DNA of 52,761 nucleotides from Thiohalorhabdus sp. Cl-TMA (GTDB lineage Bacteria; Pseudomonadota; Gammaproteobacteria; Thiohalorhabdales; Thiohalorhabdaceae). A program made the position numbers and the translations under genes. Where the stretch lies: the NCBI RefSeq assembly GCF_041821045.1, contig NZ_JBGUAW010000014.1, positions 1 through 52,761 on the forward strand, written 5' to 3'. Below are positions 1,771 through 45,105 of this stretch, piece after piece (position 1 is the stretch's first letter; every line of letters starts with the position of its first letter). The notes below the pieces were generated by a model. The model saw only the letters and a list, made by a program, of their open reading frames with translations, ran no database searches and had not been told where the DNA came from.

Positions 1771-2649
1771 TCATTCAGCGGGCAGGCGGCCCTGGAGCCG
1801 GGCGGCCTTGACGGTGTTCTCCAGCACGCAGGCCACGGTCATGGGACCGGTGCCGCCTGGGTTGGGGGTGACCGCGCCGGCCACTTCCTGTACCGAGTTG
1901 AAATCCACGTCGCCCTCGATGCCGGCGTCCGTGGGCGTCATGCCCACGTCGAACACGGCCGCGCCCGGTTTGATGTGCTCGGCGGTAATGAGCCCGGGGC
2001 TGCCCGCCGCGGCCACCAGAATGTCGGCCTCGCGGGTAACGGTGGCCAAGTCCGGGGTGCGGGAGTGCGCCAGGGTCACCGTTGCGTCGGCGCCGCGCGC
2101 GCTCAGCAGCAGGGTGAGCGGCAGACCCACCACCGTGGAGCGGCCCACGATGACCGCGCGGCGGCCTTCCGTGGGAATGCCGTAGTGCCCGATCAGGCGC
2201 ATGACGCCCAGGGGCGTGCAGGGAATCAGGCCGGTAACGCCCCGCACCAGGCGGCCCAGGTTGCCTTCGGTGAGCCCGTCGATGTCCTTCTCCGGCGGCA
2301 CGAGCCCGGTCACCGCATCGGCGTCCAGGCCGCCGGGCAGGGGTAGCTGGACGATGATGCCGTGCACCTCGGGGTCGGCCACCAGCTCCCGGACGGCCTC
2401 CTCCAGGTCCGCCTGGGCGATGTCGGCGGGCAGCCGGAGCAGGCGCGTGCGCAGACCGAGGTTATCGGCCTGCCGGTCGCGCATGCGGATGTAGCGCTCG
2501 CTGGCCTCGTCCTCGCCGACCATCACCGTGGCCAGCGTCACGTCGGGACCGCCCTCGGCCGCCAGGGTGGCGCCCAGGTTCTCACGCAGGCTGCGGGCCG
2601 CCTCCCGGCCGTCGAGAAGCAGGGCCTGTTGTCCGGAATTCGCCGTCAT
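1771..2649 (-). CDS. folD: FolD, methylene-THF dehydrogenase/cyclohydrolase
   Basis: A 292-aa protein matching FolD along its full length. The substrate and catalytic region includes ASERYIRMRDRQ (the YxxxK-type loop varies here), the conserved VQLPLPGGLDAD near residue 105, DIDGLTEGNLGRL, and the NAD(P)-binding VIVGRSTVVGLPL followed by TVTLAHSRT. It interconverts 5,10-methylene-THF, 5,10-methenyl-THF and 10-formyl-THF in the cytoplasm. It lies downstream of ftr and 5-FCL on the same strand, after a strong palindrome in the 73-base gap, so it may be partly uncoupled from them. The three genes together form a one-carbon (formyl/methenyl folate) group. Confidence 0.95.
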   Translation of the reverse strand: MTANSGQQALLLDGREAARSLRENLGATLAAEGGPDVTLATVMVGEDEASERYIRMRDRQADNLGLRTRLLRLPADIAQADLEEAVRELVADPEVHGIIVQLPLPGGLDADAVTGLVPPEKDIDGLTEGNLGRLVRGVTGLIPCTPLGVMRLIGHYGIPTEGRRAVIVGRSTVVGLPLTLLLSARGADATVTLAHSRTPDLATVTREADILVAAAGSPGLITAEHIKPGAAVFDVGMTPTDAGIEGDVDFNSVQEVAGAVTPNPGGTGPMTVACVLENTVKAARLQGRLPAE

Positions 2650-2673
2650 GATCTCGACTCACTGAATAGGAGC

Positions 2674-2695
2674 GCCCGCCTCGGCCGAGGCGGGC
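2674..2695. terminator. Perfect 22-bp palindrome between ftr and folD
   Basis: Eleven-bp arms GCCCGCCTCGG and their complement abut with no loop, so a GC-rich hairpin forms on either strand. There is no U-run, so it may act as a pausing, attenuating or mRNA-stabilising structure in the leftward transcript rather than a true intrinsic terminator. A second hairpin with AGCCCCG arms spans 2706-2734 and overlaps the ftr stop codon. Confidence 0.5.
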
Positions 2696-2722
2696 ACCAG
2701 CTGAAAGCCCCGACGCTTCCCG

Positions 2723-3658
2723 CTAAGCGGGGCTGTCGGGCTGTTTCTCGGGATGGAGATAGATCAGGTTCTTGCCCAGCTTGCCGCCGTAGTTGCCGGC
2801 GGAGATGCGCACCAGGCCCGGGGTCTCCTTGGCCGCCTCAATGGCCGCCTGGGTGGCGTCGATGACGGACTGCAGGTCCCGGCCGTTCATGATGATCTCC
2901 ATGACCGAGCTCACGCCGGCCGGCAGGCCGGGGTCGATCTCGGGCTCGTCCTGCAGGGTCGGGCAGAAGCGCTCGAAGGTGGAGGCGATGGTGAAGGAGT
3001 AGTTGCTCCCCGCCTTGGAGCCGCTGCCGGCGATACCCCCCGGGAACGGCATGTTCACGCCGGGGATCTGGTCCACCGCCGCCACGCCGCGCTCGGCGGC
3101 GGCCAGGGCGGCATCGGTGTCCTCGCCGAAGAACCACAGGTTGCCGCCCATGAGGCCCTCGGTGTAGCCGAGGCGGCGGTCCATGACGAACTCCCCGCTC
3201 AGGATCGGCGTCACCCAGACCTTGCGGCCGTAGCGCTCGTCGCGGAACTGCCAGCCGTTGCCGAAGTAGGAGACCTTCCGGCCCATCTGGTAGTAGGTGT
3301 CGCTATCGACCAGATTGAAGCAGGCCGCCGTGGGGCAGGTGAGAACGTTCTGGGAGATGCGCGCCAGGGCGGCCTTCTCCAGGGCCTCCACCCGGTCCGG
3401 ACGAAACTTCGGCATGTGCAGCTGAATGATGGCGCCGATGCGGCCGTCGGGCGTAGGGAAGGACTCGTCGTCCCCCCCGGGGCCCACGATGCGCGTGACG
3501 CCAGCCTCGCAGTCGCAAAGGATGGTGCTGGACCCGTGGCCGGTGGCCGCGTTGACGGCGTGCTGCAGCCAGGTCCGATCCCGGGCGGTTACCAGGAATT
3601 CGACGTAGATGCTCTTGAATGCCTCGGCATAGGTATCGTCGACTAGGGCCGCCGCCAT
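2723..3658 (-). CDS. ftr: Formylmethanofuran:tetrahydromethanopterin formyltransferase-like protein
   Basis: A 311-aa protein clearly homologous to Ftr/FhcD. Hallmarks are DDTYAEAFKSIYVEF at the N-terminus, LTCPTAACFN near residue 107, YFGNGWQ, SGEFVMDRRLG, the loop MPFPGGIAGSGSKAGSNY near residue 203, RFCPTL, and the C-terminal SAGNYGGKLGKNLIYLH. Known enzymes move the formyl group between a methanofuran-type and a pterin-type carrier. Here it stands alone, 3 bases downstream of 5-formyl-THF cyclo-ligase and upstream of folD, with no fhcA, B or C beside it. Either the partner genes are elsewhere, or this copy works with folate; the sequence cannot decide. Family assignment is firm, physiological substrate is not. 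Confidence 0.9.
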   Translation of the reverse strand: MAAALVDDTYAEAFKSIYVEFLVTARDRTWLQHAVNAATGHGSSTILCDCEAGVTRIVGPGGDDESFPTPDGRIGAIIQLHMPKFRPDRVEALEKAALARISQNVLTCPTAACFNLVDSDTYYQMGRKVSYFGNGWQFRDERYGRKVWVTPILSGEFVMDRRLGYTEGLMGGNLWFFGEDTDAALAAAERGVAAVDQIPGVNMPFPGGIAGSGSKAGSNYSFTIASTFERFCPTLQDEPEIDPGLPAGVSSVMEIIMNGRDLQSVIDATQAAIEAAKETPGLVRISAGNYGGKLGKNLIYLHPEKQPDSPA

Positions 3659-3661
3659 GGT

Positions 3662-4258
3662 TTATCCCCTGCCCTTGCCGTTGAAGACGCCTTCCTCGGT
3701 CACGATCTTGTCCATATAGACGTCGTGGTCGTCCACGGGGATCTTGTCGAAGATCTGGGCCTCGTAGCAGATCGCGACGAGCGGGGCATCCGGGCGCACG
3801 CGCTCCAGCAGGCGGTCGTAGTAGCCCTGGCCGTTACCCATGCGGCCGCCGGTGCGGTCGAAGCCGACGCCGGGCACGATCACGAAGTCCAGGTCCTCGG
3901 GGGCGACCTCCTTGCCCGTCTCGCCCCAGCGCTCCTTGGGCGGCTCGAGGATCTGCCACTTTCCGACCACCAGCTCGTCCATGTCCTCCAGCACGTACAG
4001 GCCGAGCTTGTTTTCGCCGTTCTCGTCCGAGGTGCAGTAGGGAACCACGATGGTCTTGTCGCTGGCGAGGGCCTCGGGCAGGTACTGGCGGGTACGAAGC
4101 TCGGTGCGGGCATCGATGTACCACATCACGGTCTTCGCCTGCTGGTACTCGGGCAGGGCGACGAGATGCTCGATGGCCTTCTGGCTGACCTCGTCCTTGT
4201 TCTCCTGGGCCTTCCGCGCATCGTAGGCCCGTCGACGCATATCCTGCTTGTCTTCCAT
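3662..4258 (-). CDS. 5-formyltetrahydrofolate cyclo-ligase
   Basis: A 198-aa protein of the 5-FCL/YgfA family, which converts 5-formyl-THF to 5,10-methenyl-THF with ATP. Visible marks are the N-terminal basic helix RRRAYDARK, WYIDARTELRT in the substrate region, FVIVPGVGFDRTGGRMG and the ATP/metal loop GNGQGYYDRLL near residue 149. The ATG at 4258 is chosen over a TTG one codon earlier. The gene leads a leftward operon with ftr (3-base gap). A possible structured RNA lies just upstream, a position occupied by 6S RNA in many gammaproteobacteria. Confidence 0.9.
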   Translation of the reverse strand: MEDKQDMRRRAYDARKAQENKDEVSQKAIEHLVALPEYQQAKTVMWYIDARTELRTRQYLPEALASDKTIVVPYCTSDENGENKLGLYVLEDMDELVVGKWQILEPPKERWGETGKEVAPEDLDFVIVPGVGFDRTGGRMGNGQGYYDRLLERVRPDAPLVAICYEAQIFDKIPVDDHDVYMDKIVTEEGVFNGKGRG

Positions 4259-4329: not shown

Positions 4330-4470
4330 GGAGGCGGTCTTTTCTCTGCTCGTGGGCATACTCTGCCAGGGGTACGCCCGATGATCCAGCGTCACCCCTT
4401 GCAGCCCACTAGGCAGACCATTCATGCAAGGGTACAGTTCCCCAAGGGGAGACTGCTTCTCGCACAAAGA
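4330..4470 (-). ncRNA. Candidate structured RNA upstream of 5-FCL (6S RNA candidate)
   Basis: On the minus strand a -10 like TATACT (4477-4482) is followed by three strong hairpins: CAGT/ACTG arms enclosing CCCC/GGGG (4435-4455), CCCTTGCA with TGCAAGGG (4396-4432), and an 8-bp GGGCGUAC/GUAUGCCC stem (4354-4379). No convincing reading frame covers it. In many gammaproteobacteria the 6S RNA gene sits immediately upstream of the 5-FCL gene, and the size (about 140-170 nt) would suit. However, I could not fold it into the classical long rod with one central bubble, so it may be another leader or regulatory RNA. The rest of 4261-4703 shows nothing else. Confidence 0.3.
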
Positions 4471-4703
4471 CGAAAGAGTATATCAGATCCCGCGCCCGGA
4501 CCCCAGCACGGCGGGCGCGGCAGCTTGGCGCGCTCCGGGCGGGGTGTTACCGCGTCCCCGCTCCGTAGCGGACGGAGCCCCAAGGTACCCCGACCTCCCG
4601 CCAGGCTCACCAACCGGGGGCTCCCTACGGTCGAAACGCGGCCCCGAAGCCCCTCAGGCACGGAACCCCCGACGGAAAGTCCGGGCCCGGTGCCGATTGG
4701 AAG

Positions 4704-22517: not shown

Positions 22518-24197
22518 ATGGAAGGGCTCATTGCAGTGGTAGCGGCTTTGCCGCTCGTTTCAGCCGGGCTGATCCAATTGCTGTCCACACGCCTGGGCCG
22601 GGGCGGGGCGCGCTTGAGCGTGGCCTTCGTGGTGGCGACCTTCGTGCTCGCCGCCGTCACGCTCGGACTCGCCCTGAGCGGCGCGGACTCCAAGCAGGTG
22701 GCCCTGGGGCACAGCTGGGGGGTGCTGCTATTCGACCCGCTGAGCACCCTGATGGCGGTGGTGATCGCCGGGATCAGCCTGATCGTCCACGTCTATTCCC
22801 TGCGCTACATGGCGGACGAGGCGGGCTATATCCGCTTTTTCGTGCTGCTGGACCTGATGACCGCGGCACTGCTCGTCATGGTTGCCGCCGGGGATCTGGT
22901 GACCCTGGTGGTGGCCTGGCATCTGGTGGGCGTCCTGCTCTACTTCCTGCTCGGCCAGGACACCACTAGCCCCTCCGCCTATCGCTACGCCTTCTGGACC
23001 CTGATCACCTATCGTATCGGCGACCTTCCGCTGGTGCTGGCGGCGGCCCTGCTGTATCACGCATTCGGAACCTGGTCGCTGCCGGAGATCTTCTCCGCCA
23101 TGTCGGCCAACCCGGGCGCGCACACCTACCTGGGAATGCCCCTGGCGGAGGTGATCGGGTGGCTGGTGGCGCTGGCGGCCTTCGCGCGCTCGGCGCAGTT
23201 CCTGCTTCATACCTGGCTGCCCTATACCATGGGTGGACCCACTCCCGTCTCCGCCCTGATGCACGCGGGGATCGTCAACGCTGGCGGCTTCCTCATCAAC
23301 CGCTTCGCCCCCGTGTTCATTCACACCGACGTCGTGCTGCACGCGGTCTTCGTGGTCGGCCTGATCACCGCGGTCATCGGCTCCGCGCTGATGCTGACCC
23401 AGAACGACATCAAGAAGTCGCTGGGCTATTCGACCATGGGCCAGATGGGCTTCATGATCATGGAGTGCGGCGTCGGCGCCTTCTCCCTGGCCATCTACCA
23501 CCTGATCGCGCACGGCCTGTTCAAGGGCACCCTGTTCCTCGGCTCGGGCCGCGCCATCCATGCCGCGCGCCAGGAGAACGGCGTGCCCAAGGATTCGCTC
23601 TACGCCTTCGTCGTGGAGCGGCAAACGACCCGCACCCGCCTGCCCTGGCTGTTGATGGCCGCCATCACGCTGGCCGTTCCCGTCTCGATCCTGGTGCTGG
23701 CCCACTGGATGGTCTCCGAGCATTACTTCCAGAAACAGGGCGCCATCGTGCTCCTGTTCTTCGGCTGGGTGACCGGGGCGCAGCTTCTGTTCGCCACCTA
23801 CCGCATGGGCGCCCAGAACCTGTGGCGGCTAGTCACCATGAGCATCTTCTCCTTCGCGGTGGTGGTGGTCGGCTACACCCTGATCAGCCACGCCTTCGAC
23901 CTGTTCCTGTATCCGGACGCGGCCTTCCGCGCGGGGATCTACGAAGCCGCGAAGGTCGATCTGTTCTGGTTCGATCTGTTCGTCGGGCTCACGACCGCCC
24001 TGATCGTGCTCGGCTGGCTGCTCACCTATTACGCGGAGCAGAACGGCGGCCAACGGCCGATCAATGCGCGCCGGGTCTGGATGAGCTTCTATGCCCTGGT
24101 CTCCCGGGAGTTCTATCTGCCCGATCTCTACACCCGCCTGACGCGCACGATCCTGGCGGCAGCGGGCCGGCTCAACGTCTGGATGAGGTGGGTCTGA
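22518..24197 (+). CDS. dabB: DabB, membrane subunit of DAB inorganic-carbon accumulation complex
   Basis: A 559-aa polytopic protein of the proton-translocating antiporter family (NuoL/MrpA-like) with about 14 hydrophobic segments. The signature block HTWLPYTMGGPTPVSALMHAG lies around residues 230-252, and IKKSLGYSTMGQMGFM around 297-312. Its place upstream of a DabA homologue identifies it as DabB rather than a complex I subunit. In the known complex, DabB couples the proton motive force to one-way hydration of CO2 by DabA. It is one base from the next gene. Starts at ATG 22518 after AGGCAGGGG. Confidence 0.93.
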   Translation: MEGLIAVVAALPLVSAGLIQLLSTRLGRGGARLSVAFVVATFVLAAVTLGLALSGADSKQVALGHSWGVLLFDPLSTLMAVVIAGISLIVHVYSLRYMADEAGYIRFFVLLDLMTAALLVMVAAGDLVTLVVAWHLVGVLLYFLLGQDTTSPSAYRYAFWTLITYRIGDLPLVLAAALLYHAFGTWSLPEIFSAMSANPGAHTYLGMPLAEVIGWLVALAAFARSAQFLLHTWLPYTMGGPTPVSALMHAGIVNAGGFLINRFAPVFIHTDVVLHAVFVVGLITAVIGSALMLTQNDIKKSLGYSTMGQMGFMIMECGVGAFSLAIYHLIAHGLFKGTLFLGSGRAIHAARQENGVPKDSLYAFVVERQTTRTRLPWLLMAAITLAVPVSILVLAHWMVSEHYFQKQGAIVLLFFGWVTGAQLLFATYRMGAQNLWRLVTMSIFSFAVVVVGYTLISHAFDLFLYPDAAFRAGIYEAAKVDLFWFDLFVGLTTALIVLGWLLTYYAEQNGGQRPINARRVWMSFYALVSREFYLPDLYTRLTRTILAAAGRLNVWMRWV

Positions 24198-24198
24198 C

Positions 24199-24969
24199 AT
24201 GTCCCTTATGAGCTATCTCCTGGCCGCGCTGTTCCTGCCCCTGTTCCCGTTCAGCGCGGCGTTCAACGCCTTGTATGGGCGCGCCGGGAACACCGCTCTG
24301 CGTGCCGCCCTCCTGCTGGCCTGGCCGCAGATCGGGATTGCGCTGATCCGGACGGCGGACGGACCGCCCCCGGACTGGCTGCTGCCCCTGGCGCTGGCGA
24401 CCTCGGCGCTCTACGCCTTTCGCGCCCTCGCCCTGCGCGAGCTGGGGCAGTGGACCGCCTACCTCGCCACCTCGCTCTGGGCCCTGCTCTGGCTGGCCGG
24501 GCCCGGCGAGCCGGCCGTCGGCTCCGCCCATCTGCACGCCCTGGGGATGAGCGCGCCGCTGGCGCTGGTGGCCCTGCTCACGGGCGGGCTGGAGCAGCGC
24601 TTCGGCGCCGCCTACACCGGCCTGTACGGCGGGCTGGCCCAGACCCTGCCGCGCTTGTCCGGGGTACTGGTGGGGGCCATGCTGGCCAGCGTGGCGCTGC
24701 CGCTGTTCCCGGCGTTCTTCACCATGCTGGCGCTGCTCCTCACCAGCACCCCCGCCATGCCCGCGGCGAGCTTCGCCCTCCTCGGCATCTGGCTGCTCTG
24801 GAGCTGGGCGGGAGCGCGCATGATCCAGGGCCTGGTGGTCGGTCCGGTGAATCCGGACATGCCCGAGTATCGAGCCGCCGATCTAGGCTCGGGATCCGCC
24901 TGGGCCTATGCCGCCGCCCTGATGGCGCTCACCATCGGCGGCCTGTTTCTGATAGGAGACCTGCCATGA
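24199..24969 (+). CDS. Extra membrane subunit between dabB and dabA
   Basis: A 256-aa, strongly hydrophobic protein with seven to eight probable membrane segments. It begins one base after the dabB stop and its TGA overlaps the dabA ATG, so it must be made with the complex. FPAFFTMLALLLTSTPAMPAASFALLGIWLLWSW near residues 172-205 resembles the later helices of NuoM/N-like antiporter subunits. It might be a half-length second antiporter module or a coupling subunit. The two-gene dabAB operons that define the family lack it, so its function is not established. Confidence 0.75.
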   Translation: MSLMSYLLAALFLPLFPFSAAFNALYGRAGNTALRAALLLAWPQIGIALIRTADGPPPDWLLPLALATSALYAFRALALRELGQWTAYLATSLWALLWLAGPGEPAVGSAHLHALGMSAPLALVALLTGGLEQRFGAAYTGLYGGLAQTLPRLSGVLVGAMLASVALPLFPAFFTMLALLLTSTPAMPAASFALLGIWLLWSWAGARMIQGLVVGPVNPDMPEYRAADLGSGSAWAYAAALMALTIGGLFLIGDLP

Positions 24970-27900
24970 GTCTCTCGCTGGGTGAAAAGCTGAAGATCCG
25001 GACCACGGTCTACGTGGCCGGGGAGCCCATTCCCTTCTTCTGGCCCATGCGCTCGTTCATCCACCACAACCCCCTGCACGGCCTGGAGCACCTCCCGTTC
25101 CCCGAGGCCGTGGAGCAAGGCGAGAAGCTGTTTCACGCCCGGGGTTACCTGCCGCGGCGCAGCTATCAGCGCTATCTCGCCGAGGGCCGAGTGGACCGCG
25201 AGCGGCTCGCCTACGAGGTGGAGGCCTTTGCCGCCGATCGCGACCCCATACCCGGGATCGACCTGCCTCGCTGGCTCATGGCCCTGCTCACGGAGACCGA
25301 GCAGTCCGTGGCGCTGAAGCGGACCCTGGCCGGGCCGGAAGATGTACTGGCCTCCCTGAACGGTTCCACATCGACGGCGGAGACCGCGCCCGGAACGGCC
25401 TCGGTCACCGGGGAGCTGCGCGCGGCGCTGCTGGGCGAGCGCCCGCTCTACGAGGCGGTGGACGCGCTCTACGGTACCGACATCGGCGCCGAGCTGGACG
25501 AGCTGGTGATCAAGAGCTGCCTCGATTTCTTCGACGAGGGGCAGTCCGTCTGGGGCATGCCGGGACGCGAGGAAGGCTTTTTCGCGGCCTGGCGCCAGAT
25601 TGCCATCCGCAACGGCCGGCTGTTCCTGCGCGGCCTCCACGTGGAGCGCATCCTGGCGGAGGCCAACGGCCCGGAGGAGGTGATCGCCCAGGTCATGCGC
25701 GCGCTGGAGGTTCCCGAGTCGCGCTGGATGGGCTGTTTCACCCGCGAGCTCGCCCGTCTGCACGGCTGGGCCGGCTTCATTCGCTGGCGCTCGAACGCGC
25801 CGCACTATCACTGGAGCGAGCAATTTCCCGGCGACCTGGTGGATATGCTCGCGGTACGCCTCACCCTGGCGCTGGCCCTGCTGAGCGAGCGCAAGCACAA
25901 GCGCCTGGCGACGACCACCGGCGCCATCGAGCAGGCGATCGAGACCCGGACCGCGGAGACCTATCTGCGGCACGAGCTCCACAGCGGGGCCATTCTGCCG
26001 GCGGAAGCACTTCGGGTGGAAAAGGCCCTGGCGCGCGGCAAACCGGACCGGATCGAGACCGTCTTCGCCGACTATGTCCGCGCCAAGCGGGATGACGAGG
26101 CCCGCCGCCAGGCCGAGCGCCTGCGGGAGCTGGGCCGCCGCGCCGAAGGCGAAGGCGGGCTCGGCACGCTTTCCGGAGAGTCGCTGGGACGGCTGCTGGA
26201 TACCCTGAACGAATTCGAGCGCAGCGAAGGCATGCTCTGGCTGCGGTCCATGGAAGCGCACGCCACCAACCGGCTGCTGGGGGAGGTCAACCTGACGCCT
26301 CCAGAGCCGCGGGAGAAACGCCCCTTCGCCCAGGCGCTGTTCTGCATCGACACCCGCTCGGAGCGGATCCGTCGCCACCTGGAGAGCGCCGGCGATTACC
26401 AGACCTTCGGCATCGCGGGCTTCTTCGGCGTGCCGGTCAGCTTCATGGAGCTCGGCAAGGGCAACGAGATCCCGTTGTGCCCGGTGCTGCTCACGCCGAA
26501 GAACCTGGTGCTGGAAATGCCCGTCTCGGCCCCGCAGGACCCGGCCGCGGTCACCGCGCTGGAGAAGGCCCTGCACGAGCTGAAGGAATCCGTCGTCAGC
26601 CCCTTCGTCACCGTGGAGGCCATCGGCCTGCTGTTCGGCCTGGACATGGTCGGCAAGACGCTGATTCCCCAGTACTACAACCGCTGGCGGCAGCACCTGC
26701 ACGAGGAGAAGCCGCCGACCCACTGGATGCTGGACAAGCTGAGCCGCGAGCAGGCCGACTCCATCGTGCGCACGGTGCAGCGCTCGGTGATCATCAAGGC
26801 GGTGGAGCAGGAATTCAGCCTGGCTGCGGAGCGCATCACGGACACCATGGTGCGCGAGCTGCGCGAGGCCGCCATGGGCAACCAGCAGCGGGCGACCGAG
26901 CTTGCCGAAGCGGCCGGCCTGGACGCCGGGGGGGAACAGGCCTTCATCGACCGCCTGCGCGAGGTCTACCGCATCGATCCCGCCTTCGCCCGGCTGCAGA
27001 TGGAGCAGTTGGGGCGCATCGGCTTCACCCTCGAGGAGCAGGTTGGCTTCGTCGGCAAGGCCTTGCGCTCCATCGGGCTGACCGAAGGGTTCTCCCGGTT
27101 CATCCTGCTGGTGGGCCACGGCAGCACCTCGGAGAACAACCCCTACGAATCGGCGCTCGATTGCGGCGCCTGTGGCGGCAATCACGGCCTGGTGAACGCC
27201 CGCGCGCTGGCGCACATGGCGAACAAGCCCGAAGTGCGGCGCCAGCTCCGGGAGCAGGGGATCGACATACCCGACGATGCCTGGTTCGTGGCCGCGCTGC
27301 ACGACACCACCACCGATGCGCTGGAGCTGGCCGACCTGGACCGCCTGCCCGGCTCGCACGGGGCCTACCTCGATCGGCTGCACAACGGCCTCACGGCCGC
27401 TTCGCGGCGCTGCGCCCAGGAGCGCATGCCCACCCTGAAGATCCCGGCCGTGGAGGGCGAGTCGGAGGATACCTACCGCGAGGCGCAGCGCAACTCCATG
27501 GATTGGTCGCAGGTGCGCCCGGAATGGGGCCTGTCCGGCAACGCCTACTTCATCATCGGCCGGAGGGCGCTTACGCAGGAGCTTTCCCTGGAAGGGCGCG
27601 CCTTCCTGCACTCCTACGATTACCGCATCGATCCCAAGCGCCGCCTGCTGGAGACCATCCTGACCGGACCGCTCGTGGTGGGTCAGTGGATCAACATGGA
27701 GCACTATTTCTCCACCGTGGACAATGAGCGCTTCGGCAGCGGCAGCAAGGTCTATCATAACGTCGCCGGCCGGTTCGGGGTCATGACCGGCAATCTCAGC
27801 GACCTGCGCACGGGCCTGCCGTCCCAGACGGTGCTCGACCAGGGCCGGCCCTACCATCAGCCGCTGCGCCTCATCACCGTAATCGAGGCGCCGCTGGAAC

Positions 27901-28076
27901 AGGCGCAGGCCGCCGTGGAGAGCGTCATCAGCGTCAAACAGCTGGTCCGCAACGGCTGGATCCGGCTGCTCGTCATCGACCCCGAGACCGGGACCGTGAC
28001 CACTTATGAGGACGGCGAATGGCTGAGCCAGCCATTCGCCGACAGTCAGCCAATCCTTGAGGAGACGAGTGCATAA
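24966..28076 (+). CDS. dabA: DabA, zinc carbonic-anhydrase-like subunit (UPF0753/DUF2309)
   Basis: A 1036-aa soluble DUF2309 protein. The beta-carbonic-anhydrase-like zinc site is present: Cys460 and Asp462 in FCIDTRSE, His718 in LVGHGS and Cys733 in LDCGACGG. The C-x-D pair and the 15-residue His-to-Cys spacing equal those of the characterised Halothiobacillus enzyme. It converts CO2 to bicarbonate on the cytoplasmic face of DabB. The N-terminus (PIPFFWPMRSFIHHNPLHGLEH) is also conserved in the family. It starts at ATG 24966, overlapping the preceding stop, and its TAA overlaps the next ATG. Longer than many DabA proteins (about 800-1000), but no obvious extra domain was seen. Confidence 0.95.
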   Translation: MSLSLGEKLKIRTTVYVAGEPIPFFWPMRSFIHHNPLHGLEHLPFPEAVEQGEKLFHARGYLPRRSYQRYLAEGRVDRERLAYEVEAFAADRDPIPGIDLPRWLMALLTETEQSVALKRTLAGPEDVLASLNGSTSTAETAPGTASVTGELRAALLGERPLYEAVDALYGTDIGAELDELVIKSCLDFFDEGQSVWGMPGREEGFFAAWRQIAIRNGRLFLRGLHVERILAEANGPEEVIAQVMRALEVPESRWMGCFTRELARLHGWAGFIRWRSNAPHYHWSEQFPGDLVDMLAVRLTLALALLSERKHKRLATTTGAIEQAIETRTAETYLRHELHSGAILPAEALRVEKALARGKPDRIETVFADYVRAKRDDEARRQAERLRELGRRAEGEGGLGTLSGESLGRLLDTLNEFERSEGMLWLRSMEAHATNRLLGEVNLTPPEPREKRPFAQALFCIDTRSERIRRHLESAGDYQTFGIAGFFGVPVSFMELGKGNEIPLCPVLLTPKNLVLEMPVSAPQDPAAVTALEKALHELKESVVSPFVTVEAIGLLFGLDMVGKTLIPQYYNRWRQHLHEEKPPTHWMLDKLSREQADSIVRTVQRSVIIKAVEQEFSLAAERITDTMVRELREAAMGNQQRATELAEAAGLDAGGEQAFIDRLREVYRIDPAFARLQMEQLGRIGFTLEEQVGFVGKALRSIGLTEGFSRFILLVGHGSTSENNPYESALDCGACGGNHGLVNARALAHMANKPEVRRQLREQGIDIPDDAWFVAALHDTTTDALELADLDRLPGSHGAYLDRLHNGLTAASRRCAQERMPTLKIPAVEGESEDTYREAQRNSMDWSQVRPEWGLSGNAYFIIGRRALTQELSLEGRAFLHSYDYRIDPKRRLLETILTGPLVVGQWINMEHYFSTVDNERFGSGSKVYHNVAGRFGVMTGNLSDLRTGLPSQTVLDQGRPYHQPLRLITVIEAPLEQAQAAVESVISVKQLVRNGWIRLLVIDPETGTVTTYEDGEWLSQPFADSQPILEETSA

Positions 28077-28429
28077 TGCATAACCTCAACTTCAGCTCCC
28101 TGAAGAAGCTCGAAATCATCCTGAGCGGTGAGCATCAGGGCTTCGCTACGGACCTGCTCGACCGGGCCGGGGTGAAGGGCTACACCATCATGCACAACCT
28201 CTCGGGCAAGGGCAGTCACGGCTTCCACGAAGGCCACCTGATGTTCAACGAGGACGACGTGCTGATCATGATCATCGCCGCCGTCCCCGAGGACATGGTG
28301 GAGCCCATCCTGGAAGGGTTCGCACCCTTCTTTAACGAGCACTCCGGCGTGGTGTTCATATCGGATATTCAGGTGACGCGCCTGGTCAAGTTCAGCGACC
28401 AGGGCGATTCCTCGAGCGACGGTCAATAA
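28076..28429 (+). CDS. PII-like signalling protein of the dab operon
   Basis: A 117-aa protein with the ferredoxin-like PII fold pattern: LKKLEIILSGEHQGFATDLLDRAGVKGYTIMHNLSGKG, then a short T-loop (HGFHEG) and the C-terminal FISDIQVTRLVKF. It lacks the GlnB uridylylation tyrosine context. Such carboxysome- or DAB-linked PII-like proteins bind nucleotides and probably tune carbon uptake. ATG 28076 overlaps the dabA stop (TAATG). It is the last gene of the operon. Confidence 0.88.
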   Translation: MHNLNFSSLKKLEIILSGEHQGFATDLLDRAGVKGYTIMHNLSGKGSHGFHEGHLMFNEDDVLIMIIAAVPEDMVEPILEGFAPFFNEHSGVVFISDIQVTRLVKFSDQGDSSSDGQ

Positions 28430-38063: not shown

Positions 38064-40298
<2,235 letters not shown>

Positions 40299-40533: not shown

Positions 40534-40878
40534 CTATATCGCCGCTTCGGGATTGAAAACGGGCTCAATGGTACCGAGAGCCGCGATAGCCCAGAGACCG
40601 CTGGATAGCAAGAAATAGACGAATAGCACCACAGGCGTCGCAGAGCGTCCGGAGCCGGGCATTTCTTTGAACCAGAGGAGTCCCGCGGCCGCGGCGGGTA
40701 CCGCGTAGACCCACGCCCCGATGGTAAGCAGCGTCTGGGTCATCCAGAAGTCGGTGAAGAATGGGCCGTAGCCCTCGGCCGCGACCCGTAGAATACCCGC
40801 AACCTGATGAAAAACCGCCGCCGGTAGCAGCACGAGCACCAAGCCCGCCGAACGCAAGGCCCTGTCCTTATCCACCAT
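40534..40878 (-). CDS. Small four-helix membrane protein, copy A
   Basis: A 114-aa protein (MVDKDRALRSAGLVLVLLPAAVF...) with three to four hydrophobic segments separated by short loops, and the tail GTIEPVFNPEAAI. No family is recognised. A paralogue of about 85-90% identity lies at 44761-45105, and the duplicated DNA reaches from the repeat downstream of the stop to the repeat upstream of the start, so the whole module moved as a unit. A CTCC-rich ribosome site (AGGAGAACC on the minus strand) precedes the ATG. Confidence 0.75.
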   Translation of the reverse strand: MVDKDRALRSAGLVLVLLPAAVFHQVAGILRVAAEGYGPFFTDFWMTQTLLTIGAWVYAVPAAAAGLLWFKEMPGSGRSATPVVLFVYFLLSSGLWAIAALGTIEPVFNPEAAI

Positions 40879-44760: not shown

Positions 44761-45105
44761 CTATATCGCCGCTTCGGGATTGAACACGGGCTCGATGGTA
44801 CCAAGCGCCGCGATGGCCCAGAGGGCGCTGGATAGCGAGAAATAGACGAATAGCACCGCAGGCGTCGCGGAGCGTCCAGAGCCAGGGATCTCTTTCAGCC
44901 AGAGGAGCCCCGCGGCCGCGGCGGGTACCACGTAGACCCACGCCCCGGTGGAAAGCAGGACCTGGGTCATCCAGAAGTCGGTGAAGAATGGGCCGTGGCC
45001 CTCGGAAACGACCCGTAAAGTACCCGCAACCTGTTGAAAAACCGCCGCCGGTAGCAGCACGAGCACCAAGCCCGCCGAACGCAAGGCCCTGTCCTTATCC
45101 ACCAT
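44761..45105 (-). CDS. Small four-helix membrane protein, copy B
   Basis: A 114-aa paralogue of the gene at 40534-40878; the first 23 and last 18 residues are nearly identical and differences are conservative, so both copies have been under selection. Same upstream context: start codon, AGGAGAGCC, then the repeat GTGGGTGTCCTTTAGCT. Function unknown. Confidence 0.75.
   Translation of the reverse strand: MVDKDRALRSAGLVLVLLPAAVFQQVAGTLRVVSEGHGPFFTDFWMTQVLLSTGAWVYVVPAAAAGLLWLKEIPGSGRSATPAVLFVYFSLSSALWAIAALGTIEPVFNPEAAI

What the first reader, a model, noticed from the sequence alone, without database searches (positions are those of the whole stretch)
1771..4258. Methanopterin-type formyltransferase placed in a folate operon
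Seen: an Ftr homologue lies 3 bases after 5-formyl-THF cyclo-ligase and before folD, with no fhcABC, mch or mtd genes. Known: Ftr normally moves formyl between methanofuran and tetrahydromethanopterin. Inference: it may transfer formyl groups to or from a folate, or connect a partial H4MPT route with folate; formaldehyde from the Tmd enzyme could feed it.
Basis: partly seen in the sequence, partly recalled or inferred. Interest (0 to 1): 0.6.

Follow-up and report, generated by a model that had tools for sequence, protein, structure and literature searches.

The report
Formyl bridge from methylofuran to folate
A three-gene cluster (a folate cyclo-ligase, a second methanopterin-type formyltransferase and folD) looks like a direct one-carbon bridge from methylofuran to folate that stands in for formate-tetrahydrofolate ligase in some methylotrophic bacteria, which would be a new entry to the serine cycle if the chemistry is confirmed.

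Summary
In detail: 5-FCL (3662-4258, minus), an Ftr homologue (2723-3658) three bases later, then folD (1771-2649). It is neither a relocated fhcD nor part of an incomplete H4MPT route: contig C6 holds fae, an mtdB-like gene, mch and an fhc operon with its own fhcD. The window protein is a second Ftr ("Ftr2", my label), a separate clade found in Gammaproteobacteria, Planctomycetota and Methylomirabilis, accompanied by a canonical Ftr in 38 of 38 genomes checked. In gammaproteobacteria a 5-FCL precedes it in 37 of 37 testable loci, folD follows in 27 of 36, and a serine-cycle-type aminotransferase lies downstream in 28 of 33. Among serine-cycle (MtkA-positive) genomes, formate-THF ligase (FtfL) is present in 2 of 14 with Ftr2 and 23 of 24 without. 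Best explanation: Ftr2 passes formyl from methylofuran to N5 of THF, 5-FCL makes methenyl-THF with ATP, FolD reduces it. Nothing was assayed. The window's genome lacks the serine-cycle marker; planctomycetes show no FtfL anticorrelation. Ten literature searches found no description.

The parts
3662..4258 (-). 5-formyltetrahydrofolate cyclo-ligase, cluster subfamily, first gene
   Evidence: PF01812 152 bits, TIGR02727 147 bits; 62-83% identical to the 5-FCL beside nine other gammaproteobacterial Ftr2; 26% to the ordinary 5-FCL of a same-genus genome that has no Ftr
2723..3658 (-). Ftr2: second, divergent formylmethanofuran:tetrahydromethanopterin-type formyltransferase, 311 aa
   Evidence: PF01913 + PF02741, TIGR03119 and PRK02114 over cut-off; separate clade, SH-aLRT 100; predicted fold matches Ftr, Z 30.5-32.9
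1771..2649 (-). FolD, bifunctional methylene-THF dehydrogenase/cyclohydrolase; second folD of this genome
   Evidence: PF00763, PF02882; another folD at C2:359116, while the same-genus genome without Ftr has only one folD match
2674..2695 (-). perfect 22-base palindrome between ftr2 and folD; no T run, role unknown
   Evidence: seen in the sequence printed; no terminator-like site by scan
38091..40298 (+). trimethylamine dehydrogenase, a possible source of formaldehyde for the H4MPT branch (link is inference)
   Evidence: 1217 bits to PDB 1djn; PF00724

Best explanation
The cluster encodes a bridge that moves formyl groups from the methylofuran (MYFR)/H4MPT branch into folate without free formate being ligated by FtfL. 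Step 1: Fae, MtdB, Mch and the Fhc complex, encoded elsewhere, make formyl-MYFR. Step 2: Ftr2 transfers the formyl group to N5 of tetrahydrofolate, as canonical Ftr does with N5 of H4MPT, giving 5-formyl-THF. Step 3: 5-FCL uses ATP to turn 5-formyl-THF into 5,10-methenyl-THF. Step 4: FolD reduces it to methylene-THF (or hydrates it to 10-formyl-THF). In many relatives this feeds the serine cycle; in the window's genome it would feed biosynthetic C1. Shown here: gene content, order, conservation and phylogeny, and co-occurrence with FtfL, FchA, MtkA and canonical Ftr. Inferred: the substrates, the direction and the N5 product of Ftr2.
For: (1) Adjacency to a 5-FCL in 37 of 37 testable gammaproteobacterial loci, in 24 of 40 testable loci of the planctomycete group and in the one Methylomirabilis locus. 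5-FCL is the enzyme needed if the product is N5-formyl-THF. (2) folD next in 27 of 36 testable gammaproteobacterial loci; in 7 of 12 Ftr2 gammaproteobacteria examined besides the window's genome and its congener G002, the cluster folD is the only folD match (of the other five, three have one folD elsewhere and two none found). (3) Serine-cycle-type genes downstream: aminotransferase in 28 of 33, MtkA in 25 of 31 testable gammaproteobacterial loci. (4) FtfL in genomes with MtkA over cut-off: 2 of 14 with Ftr2 (class draw 2 of 7, named genomes 0 of 7), 23 of 24 without. FchA in the class draw: 0 of 7 and 20 of 24. By family in the class draw, FtfL in 1 of 4 versus 12 of 12, Fisher p = 0.007. (5) Ftr2 was found only with a canonical-type Ftr: 10 of 10, 26 of 26 and 2 of 2 further genomes, which points to a need for formyl-MYFR. 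(6) 54 positions including E245 (M. kandleri numbering) are kept in at least 90% of Ftr2 and of FhcD rows and in the three archaeal Ftr, and the fold is kept. (7) In one Methylococcaceae bin (L053) the pair is followed by a gene 49% identical to the 4-HFC-P synthase (methylofuran pathway, PF04476) of the window's genome; it is below the curated NCBIfam cut-offs.
Against: No biochemistry. In Planctomycetota FtfL is about as common with Ftr2 (13 of 47) as without (4 of 12), and no aminotransferase, lyase or MtkA of the serine-cycle type lies beside Ftr2 there (0 of 45). FtfL remains in 3 of 38 Ftr2 gammaproteobacteria (G087, G210, G373). The window's own genome has no MtkA over the cut-off. One serine-cycle genome lacks both FtfL and Ftr2 (G121), so other solutions exist. 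MYFR is described as tightly bound in the M. extorquens Fhc complex (PMC8141765, passages), so a separate Ftr2 would need access to it. The genomes are related and many are draft bins; the whole-genome p-values ignore this. Ftr2 sequence alone does not show that the acceptor is folate.
Confidence: 0.66

Rival explanations
1. Ftr2 is a second ordinary Ftr that still uses H4MPT, an isoenzyme for other conditions, and its place beside folate genes reflects shared regulation only.
For: It passes the curated Ftr models and keeps the fold and E245. Some Ftr-positive genomes without Ftr2 also carry two or more canonical Ftr matches (for example G121, G134, G175).
Against: Ftr2 is a separate clade with its own fixed changes. 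No fhcA, fhcB, fhcC or mch was found beside it in the flanks held of 83 loci. It is tied to 5-FCL across three phyla and goes with FtfL absence in serine-cycle gammaproteobacteria.
Confidence: 0.15
2. Disposal in the reverse direction: 5-formyl-THF, a dead-end folate made by SHMT, is cleared by Ftr2, which moves the formyl group to methylofuran for hydrolysis to formate, with 5-FCL as a parallel clearing route.
For: Same neighbours; 5-FCL is known to clear 5-formyl-THF (recalled). Planctomycetes have the pair without serine-cycle-type genes beside it.
Against: It does not explain the place at the head of serine-cycle genes or the missing FtfL and FchA. Two enzymes competing for one substrate would be an odd operon.
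Confidence: 0.1
3. The whole cluster works on methanopterin: the 5-FCL homologue closes 5-formyl-H4MPT with ATP and the FolD homologue reduces methenyl-H4MPT.
For: The cluster 5-FCL is a distinct subfamily, far from ordinary gammaproteobacterial 5-FCL.
Against: Mch already does that step without ATP and is present in the window's genome. In 7 of 12 gammaproteobacteria examined the cluster folD is the only folD match. The 5-FCL beside Ftr2 is the only 5-FCL match of the genome in 8 of 10 class-draw and 19 of 26 named Ftr2 genomes; the other 7 named ones have a single 5-FCL elsewhere, and G000 and G002 have two. These sole copies presumably serve folate.
Confidence: 0.05

Closest known systems
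Ftr / FhcD, formylmethanofuran:tetrahydromethanopterin formyltransferase (EC 2.3.1.101; PDB 1ftr, 1m5s, 1m5h, 6s6y_D)
   Same: Both Pfam domains, same predicted fold (Z 30.5-32.9), conserved E245 and 53 other positions.
   Different: Separate clade; not in an fhc operon; 38% identical to the genome's own FhcD; fixed changes including R22E, G94S, C96N, V205A, V211A and short inserts; linked to folate genes.
FtfL + FchA + MtdA route of Methylobacterium extorquens (formate to methylene-THF for the serine cycle)
   Same: Same metabolic place: delivers C1 from the H4MPT branch to folate for serine synthesis with an ATP-using step. In 9 of 23 control genomes with both, FtfL lies on the same contig as MtkA, within 9 kb in 7 of these 9; in the other 14 they are on different contigs.
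   Different: Different enzymes; formyl taken from methylofuran and not from free formate; ATP used at 5-FCL; predicted intermediate 5-formyl-THF.
Housekeeping 5-FCL (MTHFS, ygfA; in the same-genus genome G001 after a zapA-like gene, named by eye, and 6S RNA)
   Same: Same family and predicted reaction.
   Different: Different subfamily (26% identity), no 6S RNA match upstream of the window copy, tied to Ftr2; predicted main-line role instead of repair.

Membership tests
Ftr (EC 2.3.1.101) | FTR and FTR_C domains and curated Ftr models | tested here: met
   TIGR03119 295.3 against 292.6, a narrow pass
Ftr (EC 2.3.1.101) | Ftr fold | tested here: met
   AlphaFold2 model pLDDT 83; Z 30.5-32.9 to four Ftr structures, next best about 8
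Ftr (EC 2.3.1.101) | conserved glutamate E245 (catalytic role recalled, from no call) | tested here: met
   kept in at least 90% of Ftr2 and of FhcD rows and in all three archaeal rows
Ftr (EC 2.3.1.101) | transfers formyl between methanofuran and H4MPT | not testable with these tools
   needs an assay; acceptor predicted to be THF
FhcD, subunit of the bacterial formyltransferase/hydrolase complex | encoded in the fhcABCD operon | tested here: not met
   no fhcA, fhcB, fhcC or mch in the flanks held of 38 gammaproteobacterial and 45 other Ftr2 loci; the genome's fhc operon has its own fhcD
FhcD, subunit of the bacterial formyltransferase/hydrolase complex | groups with FhcD in a tree | tested here: not met
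   84 Ftr2 rows are one side of a branch, SH-aLRT 100 (quick method)
5-formyltetrahydrofolate cyclo-ligase | curated family model | tested here: met
   TIGR02727 147 bits against 84.9
5-formyltetrahydrofolate cyclo-ligase | glycine-rich loop ending GYYDR (motif recalled) | tested here: met
   present in the window protein; 42 of 61 cluster 5-FCL rows end GYYDR, the other 19, planctomycete and Methylomirabilis rows, end GYYDK
FtfL-dependent serine-cycle entry | FtfL (PF01268) present in the genome | tested here: not met
   no match in G000 and G002; present in 3 of 38 Ftr2 gammaproteobacteria
Serine-cycle methylotroph (window genome) | malate-CoA ligase MtkA over the curated cut-off | tested here: not met
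   best match 553.8 bits against 604

The most novel reading that the evidence does not exclude
Ftr2 with 5-FCL is a second, unrecognised way into folate-based C1 assimilation: the formyl group goes from methylofuran to N5 of THF, so that 5-formyl-THF, usually seen as a dead end or store, is a main-line intermediate and 5-FCL a central assimilatory enzyme. With FhcA run backwards the same set could also activate formate without FtfL, the ATP at 5-FCL pulling the reaction.
Probability: 0.5. Interest if true: 0.88.

Novelty: new variant of a known kind. Interest (0 to 1): 0.76.

Why it matters
In M. extorquens the H4MPT and folate branches are joined through formate and FtfL, and attempts to remove FtfL during growth on C1 compounds failed (PMC539335, passages; spontaneous condensation of formaldehyde with folate is a further link there). 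A direct formyl bridge would explain how uncultured gammaproteobacteria, among them two bins titled as the sponge symbiont Porisulfidus (L057, L061), can have the serine-cycle marker MtkA without FtfL or FchA. It would give 5-FCL a main role in carbon assimilation and offer an FtfL-free module for synthetic methylotrophy. It also warns that Ftr or fhcD marker surveys may count two different enzymes.

Tried and rejected
Relocated fhcD: rejected, the genome's fhc operon has its own fhcD.

6S RNA upstream of the 5-FCL: the stretch 4460-4640 looked 6S-like to me, but Rfam gave nothing there, while 6S was found beside the ordinary 5-FCL of G001. Dropped.

FtfL replacement in planctomycetes: not supported (13 of 47 against 4 of 12). 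One of the 12, G511, has only a fragment of an Ftr match whose type is unclear. Within planctomycetes I saw by eye no clear link between 5-FCL adjacency and FtfL; not tested formally.

Spread outside the class: in 398 Pseudomonadota genomes drawn, 18 had an Ftr and only the window's had Ftr2; 14 of the 18 lie outside the class. In Planctomycetota 15 of 149 had an Ftr, 3 of them Ftr2.

Rows dropped: of 111 Ftr2 and 59 FhcD full-length rows, 84 and 57 distinct ones went into the tree; 3 partial FhcD rows were left out. Of 98 full-length 5-FCL rows 69 distinct ones were used and 3 partial left out; 5-FCLs not matched at E 1e-10 by the window's were never in that tree. Of the genomes of the 80 named loci, 26 were tested for canonical Ftr, MtkA and 5-FCL, 9 for FchA and 74 for FtfL; the other 6 are copies of class-draw genomes, judged by equal contig lengths. 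5-FCL was searched in only 13 of the 39 class-draw genomes with canonical Ftr alone. The genome-contig scan found 400 relatives and returned only 80. All trees are quick ones without bootstrap; test_one_clade was not run.

Literature: ten searches gave no listed paper that I recognised as describing an Ftr-5-FCL link; only open-licence PubMed Central papers are held, and long lists were cut. Seen: PMC5020050 part 1 of 3; passages of PMC539335, PMC8141765, PMC8879981, PMC13300288; the rest as search listings.

Full report
What is in the window. On the minus strand lie, in order of reading, a 5-formyl-THF cyclo-ligase (5-FCL, 4258-3662), an Ftr homologue (3658-2723) and folD (2649-1771), with gaps of 3 and 73 bases. 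Pfam agrees on all three; NCBIfam passes the first two over curated cut-offs, while FolD matches many FolD models below theirs. None of the H4MPT genes that I searched for, other than this Ftr, is in the window.

It is an extra Ftr, not a relocated one. The genome (3.74 Mb, 99% complete) has two Ftr genes. The other sits on contig C6 between fhcA and fhcC, preceded by fhcB (TIGR03129, only just, TIGR03121 and TIGR03122 over cut-off). On the same stretch of about 28 kb lie mch (TIGR03120), an mtdB-like gene (PF09176), fae (TIGR03126), a beta-RFA-P synthase family gene (TIGR00144), a 4-HFC-P synthase (PF04476, methylofuran pathway) and a formate dehydrogenase alpha subunit (TIGR01591). The H4MPT route from formaldehyde to formate is therefore complete as far as I searched.

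A distinct clade. In a draw of 369 gammaproteobacterial genomes, 49 have an Ftr and 10 of these carry a second, low-scoring type (128-150 bits against 189 or more for full canonical matches). I call it Ftr2. It forms one side of a branch in a tree of 145 rows, SH-aLRT 100. Fifty-four positions are kept in at least 90% of Ftr2 and of FhcD rows and in three archaeal Ftr, including E245 of M. kandleri, and Ftr2 has its own fixed residues and inserts. As a profile it scores archaeal Ftr (254-259 bits) above M. extorquens FhcD (184 bits). The AlphaFold2 model matches the four Ftr structures at Z 30.5-32.9. A named-genome scan gave 80 loci: 34 that I take as gammaproteobacterial (a few titled only Proteobacteria or Porisulfidus), one Methylomirabilis and 45 others, 44 of them titled as planctomycetes. 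In the Ftr2 tree the gammaproteobacterial rows lie among planctomycete rows, which suggests transfer between phyla.

Gene order. 5-FCL stands next to Ftr2 in 37 of 37 testable gammaproteobacterial loci, in 24 of 40 testable loci of the planctomycete group and in the Methylomirabilis locus. folD follows in 27 of 36 testable gammaproteobacterial loci. In 28 of 33 a serine-cycle-type aminotransferase lies downstream, and in 25 of 31 malate-CoA ligase MtkA, usually with malyl-CoA-lyase-type, MtkB and hydroxypyruvate-reductase-type genes. The names of the aminotransferase, lyase and reductase are my reading of the cluster: in NCBIfam the aminotransferase and the lyase match related models below their cut-offs, and only MtkA passes a malate-CoA ligase model (689 bits against 604). 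Five testable loci lack the downstream aminotransferase: the window's, L053, L059, L062 and L072. L053 has instead a gene related to the 4-HFC-P synthase. No locus has fhcA, fhcB, fhcC or mch beside Ftr2 in the flanks held.

Phylogenetic profile. FtfL (PF01268) is the known link from formate to THF. Among Ftr-positive genomes of the class draw it is present in 2 of 10 with Ftr2 and 31 of 39 without (Fisher p = 0.0009). Restricted to genomes with MtkA over cut-off it is 2 of 7 against 23 of 24 (p = 0.0007); with seven named genomes added, 2 of 14 against 23 of 24. By family in the class draw it is 1 of 4 against 12 of 12 (p = 0.007). The methenyl-THF cyclohydrolase FchA (PF04961) is in 0 of 7 and 20 of 24. 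A further 20 named Ftr2 gammaproteobacteria have no FtfL over cut-off, so 3 of 38 have it in all (G087, G210, G373); none of these three has folD in the cluster. Many genomes are draft bins, and near relatives are not independent. In planctomycetes the pattern is absent: 13 of 47 with Ftr2 and 4 of 12 without have FtfL.

Within the window's genus. The congener G001 has no Ftr at all, one folD match, and an ordinary 5-FCL after a zapA-like gene and 6S RNA. G000 and G002 have both Ftr types, the cluster 5-FCL and a second folD. A further, divergent 5-FCL family gene is found in all three. So the three window genes look like an acquired module (inference). No MtkA over cut-off was found in G000 or G002, so the module there probably supplies biosynthetic C1. 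Tmd could supply formaldehyde.

Mechanism. Canonical Ftr forms N5-formyl-H4MPT (established knowledge, recalled). The same regiochemistry on THF gives 5-formyl-THF, and 5-FCL is the enzyme that returns 5-formyl-THF to methenyl-THF, using ATP (recalled). FolD completes the path to methylene-THF. This explains why these three genes are together, why they stand at the head of serine-cycle genes, why FtfL and FchA can be missing, and why Ftr2 was found only with a canonical-type Ftr (10 of 10, 26 of 26 and 2 of 2 further genomes). The ATP cost would equal that of FtfL; free formate is avoided (inference).

What is not shown. Substrates, direction and product are inferred. MYFR is described as tightly bound to Fhc in M. 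extorquens (PMC8141765, passages), so access of Ftr2 to formyl-MYFR is an open question; Ftr2 may dock on Fhc, or MYFR may be freer in these bacteria. Planctomycetes may use the pair differently.

Novelty. Ten full-text searches turned up no paper that I recognised as describing this link (listed under Tried and rejected). The 2016 overview of H4MPT/methanofuran gene distribution, of which I read the first of three parts (PMC5020050), speaks there of second gene sets in Burkholderia, not of this clade. I file it as a new variant of a known kind: an Ftr-family enzyme with a predicted new acceptor, in a new module.

Noticed in passing
window 2674-2695: Perfect 22-base palindrome in the 73-base gap between ftr2 and folD, without a T run; could be a processing or attenuation element.
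   Followed up: partly
G000 C1:55284-55847 (L186:5156-5881) and G001 C6 (L185:4934-5653): A divergent second 5-FCL family gene between genes that look like gyrB and topA (by eye), found in three genomes of the genus including the one without any Ftr.
   Followed up: partly
window 40534-40878 and 44761-45105, minus strand: Two very similar 114-aa membrane-protein-like ORFs about 4 kb apart.
   Followed up: no
window 22518-28429: Three ORFs that look by eye like a DabB/DabA-type inorganic carbon system with a small P-II-like ORF; NCBIfam gave no hit for the large one.
   Followed up: no
G121 (class draw): A serine-cycle genome (MtkA over cut-off) with FchA but neither FtfL nor Ftr2: some other way into formyl-THF may exist there.
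   Followed up: no
L046, L047, L050, L055, L063 and others: ilvD (dihydroxy-acid dehydratase, named by eye) is a recurring upstream neighbour of 5-FCL in gammaproteobacterial loci.
   Followed up: no
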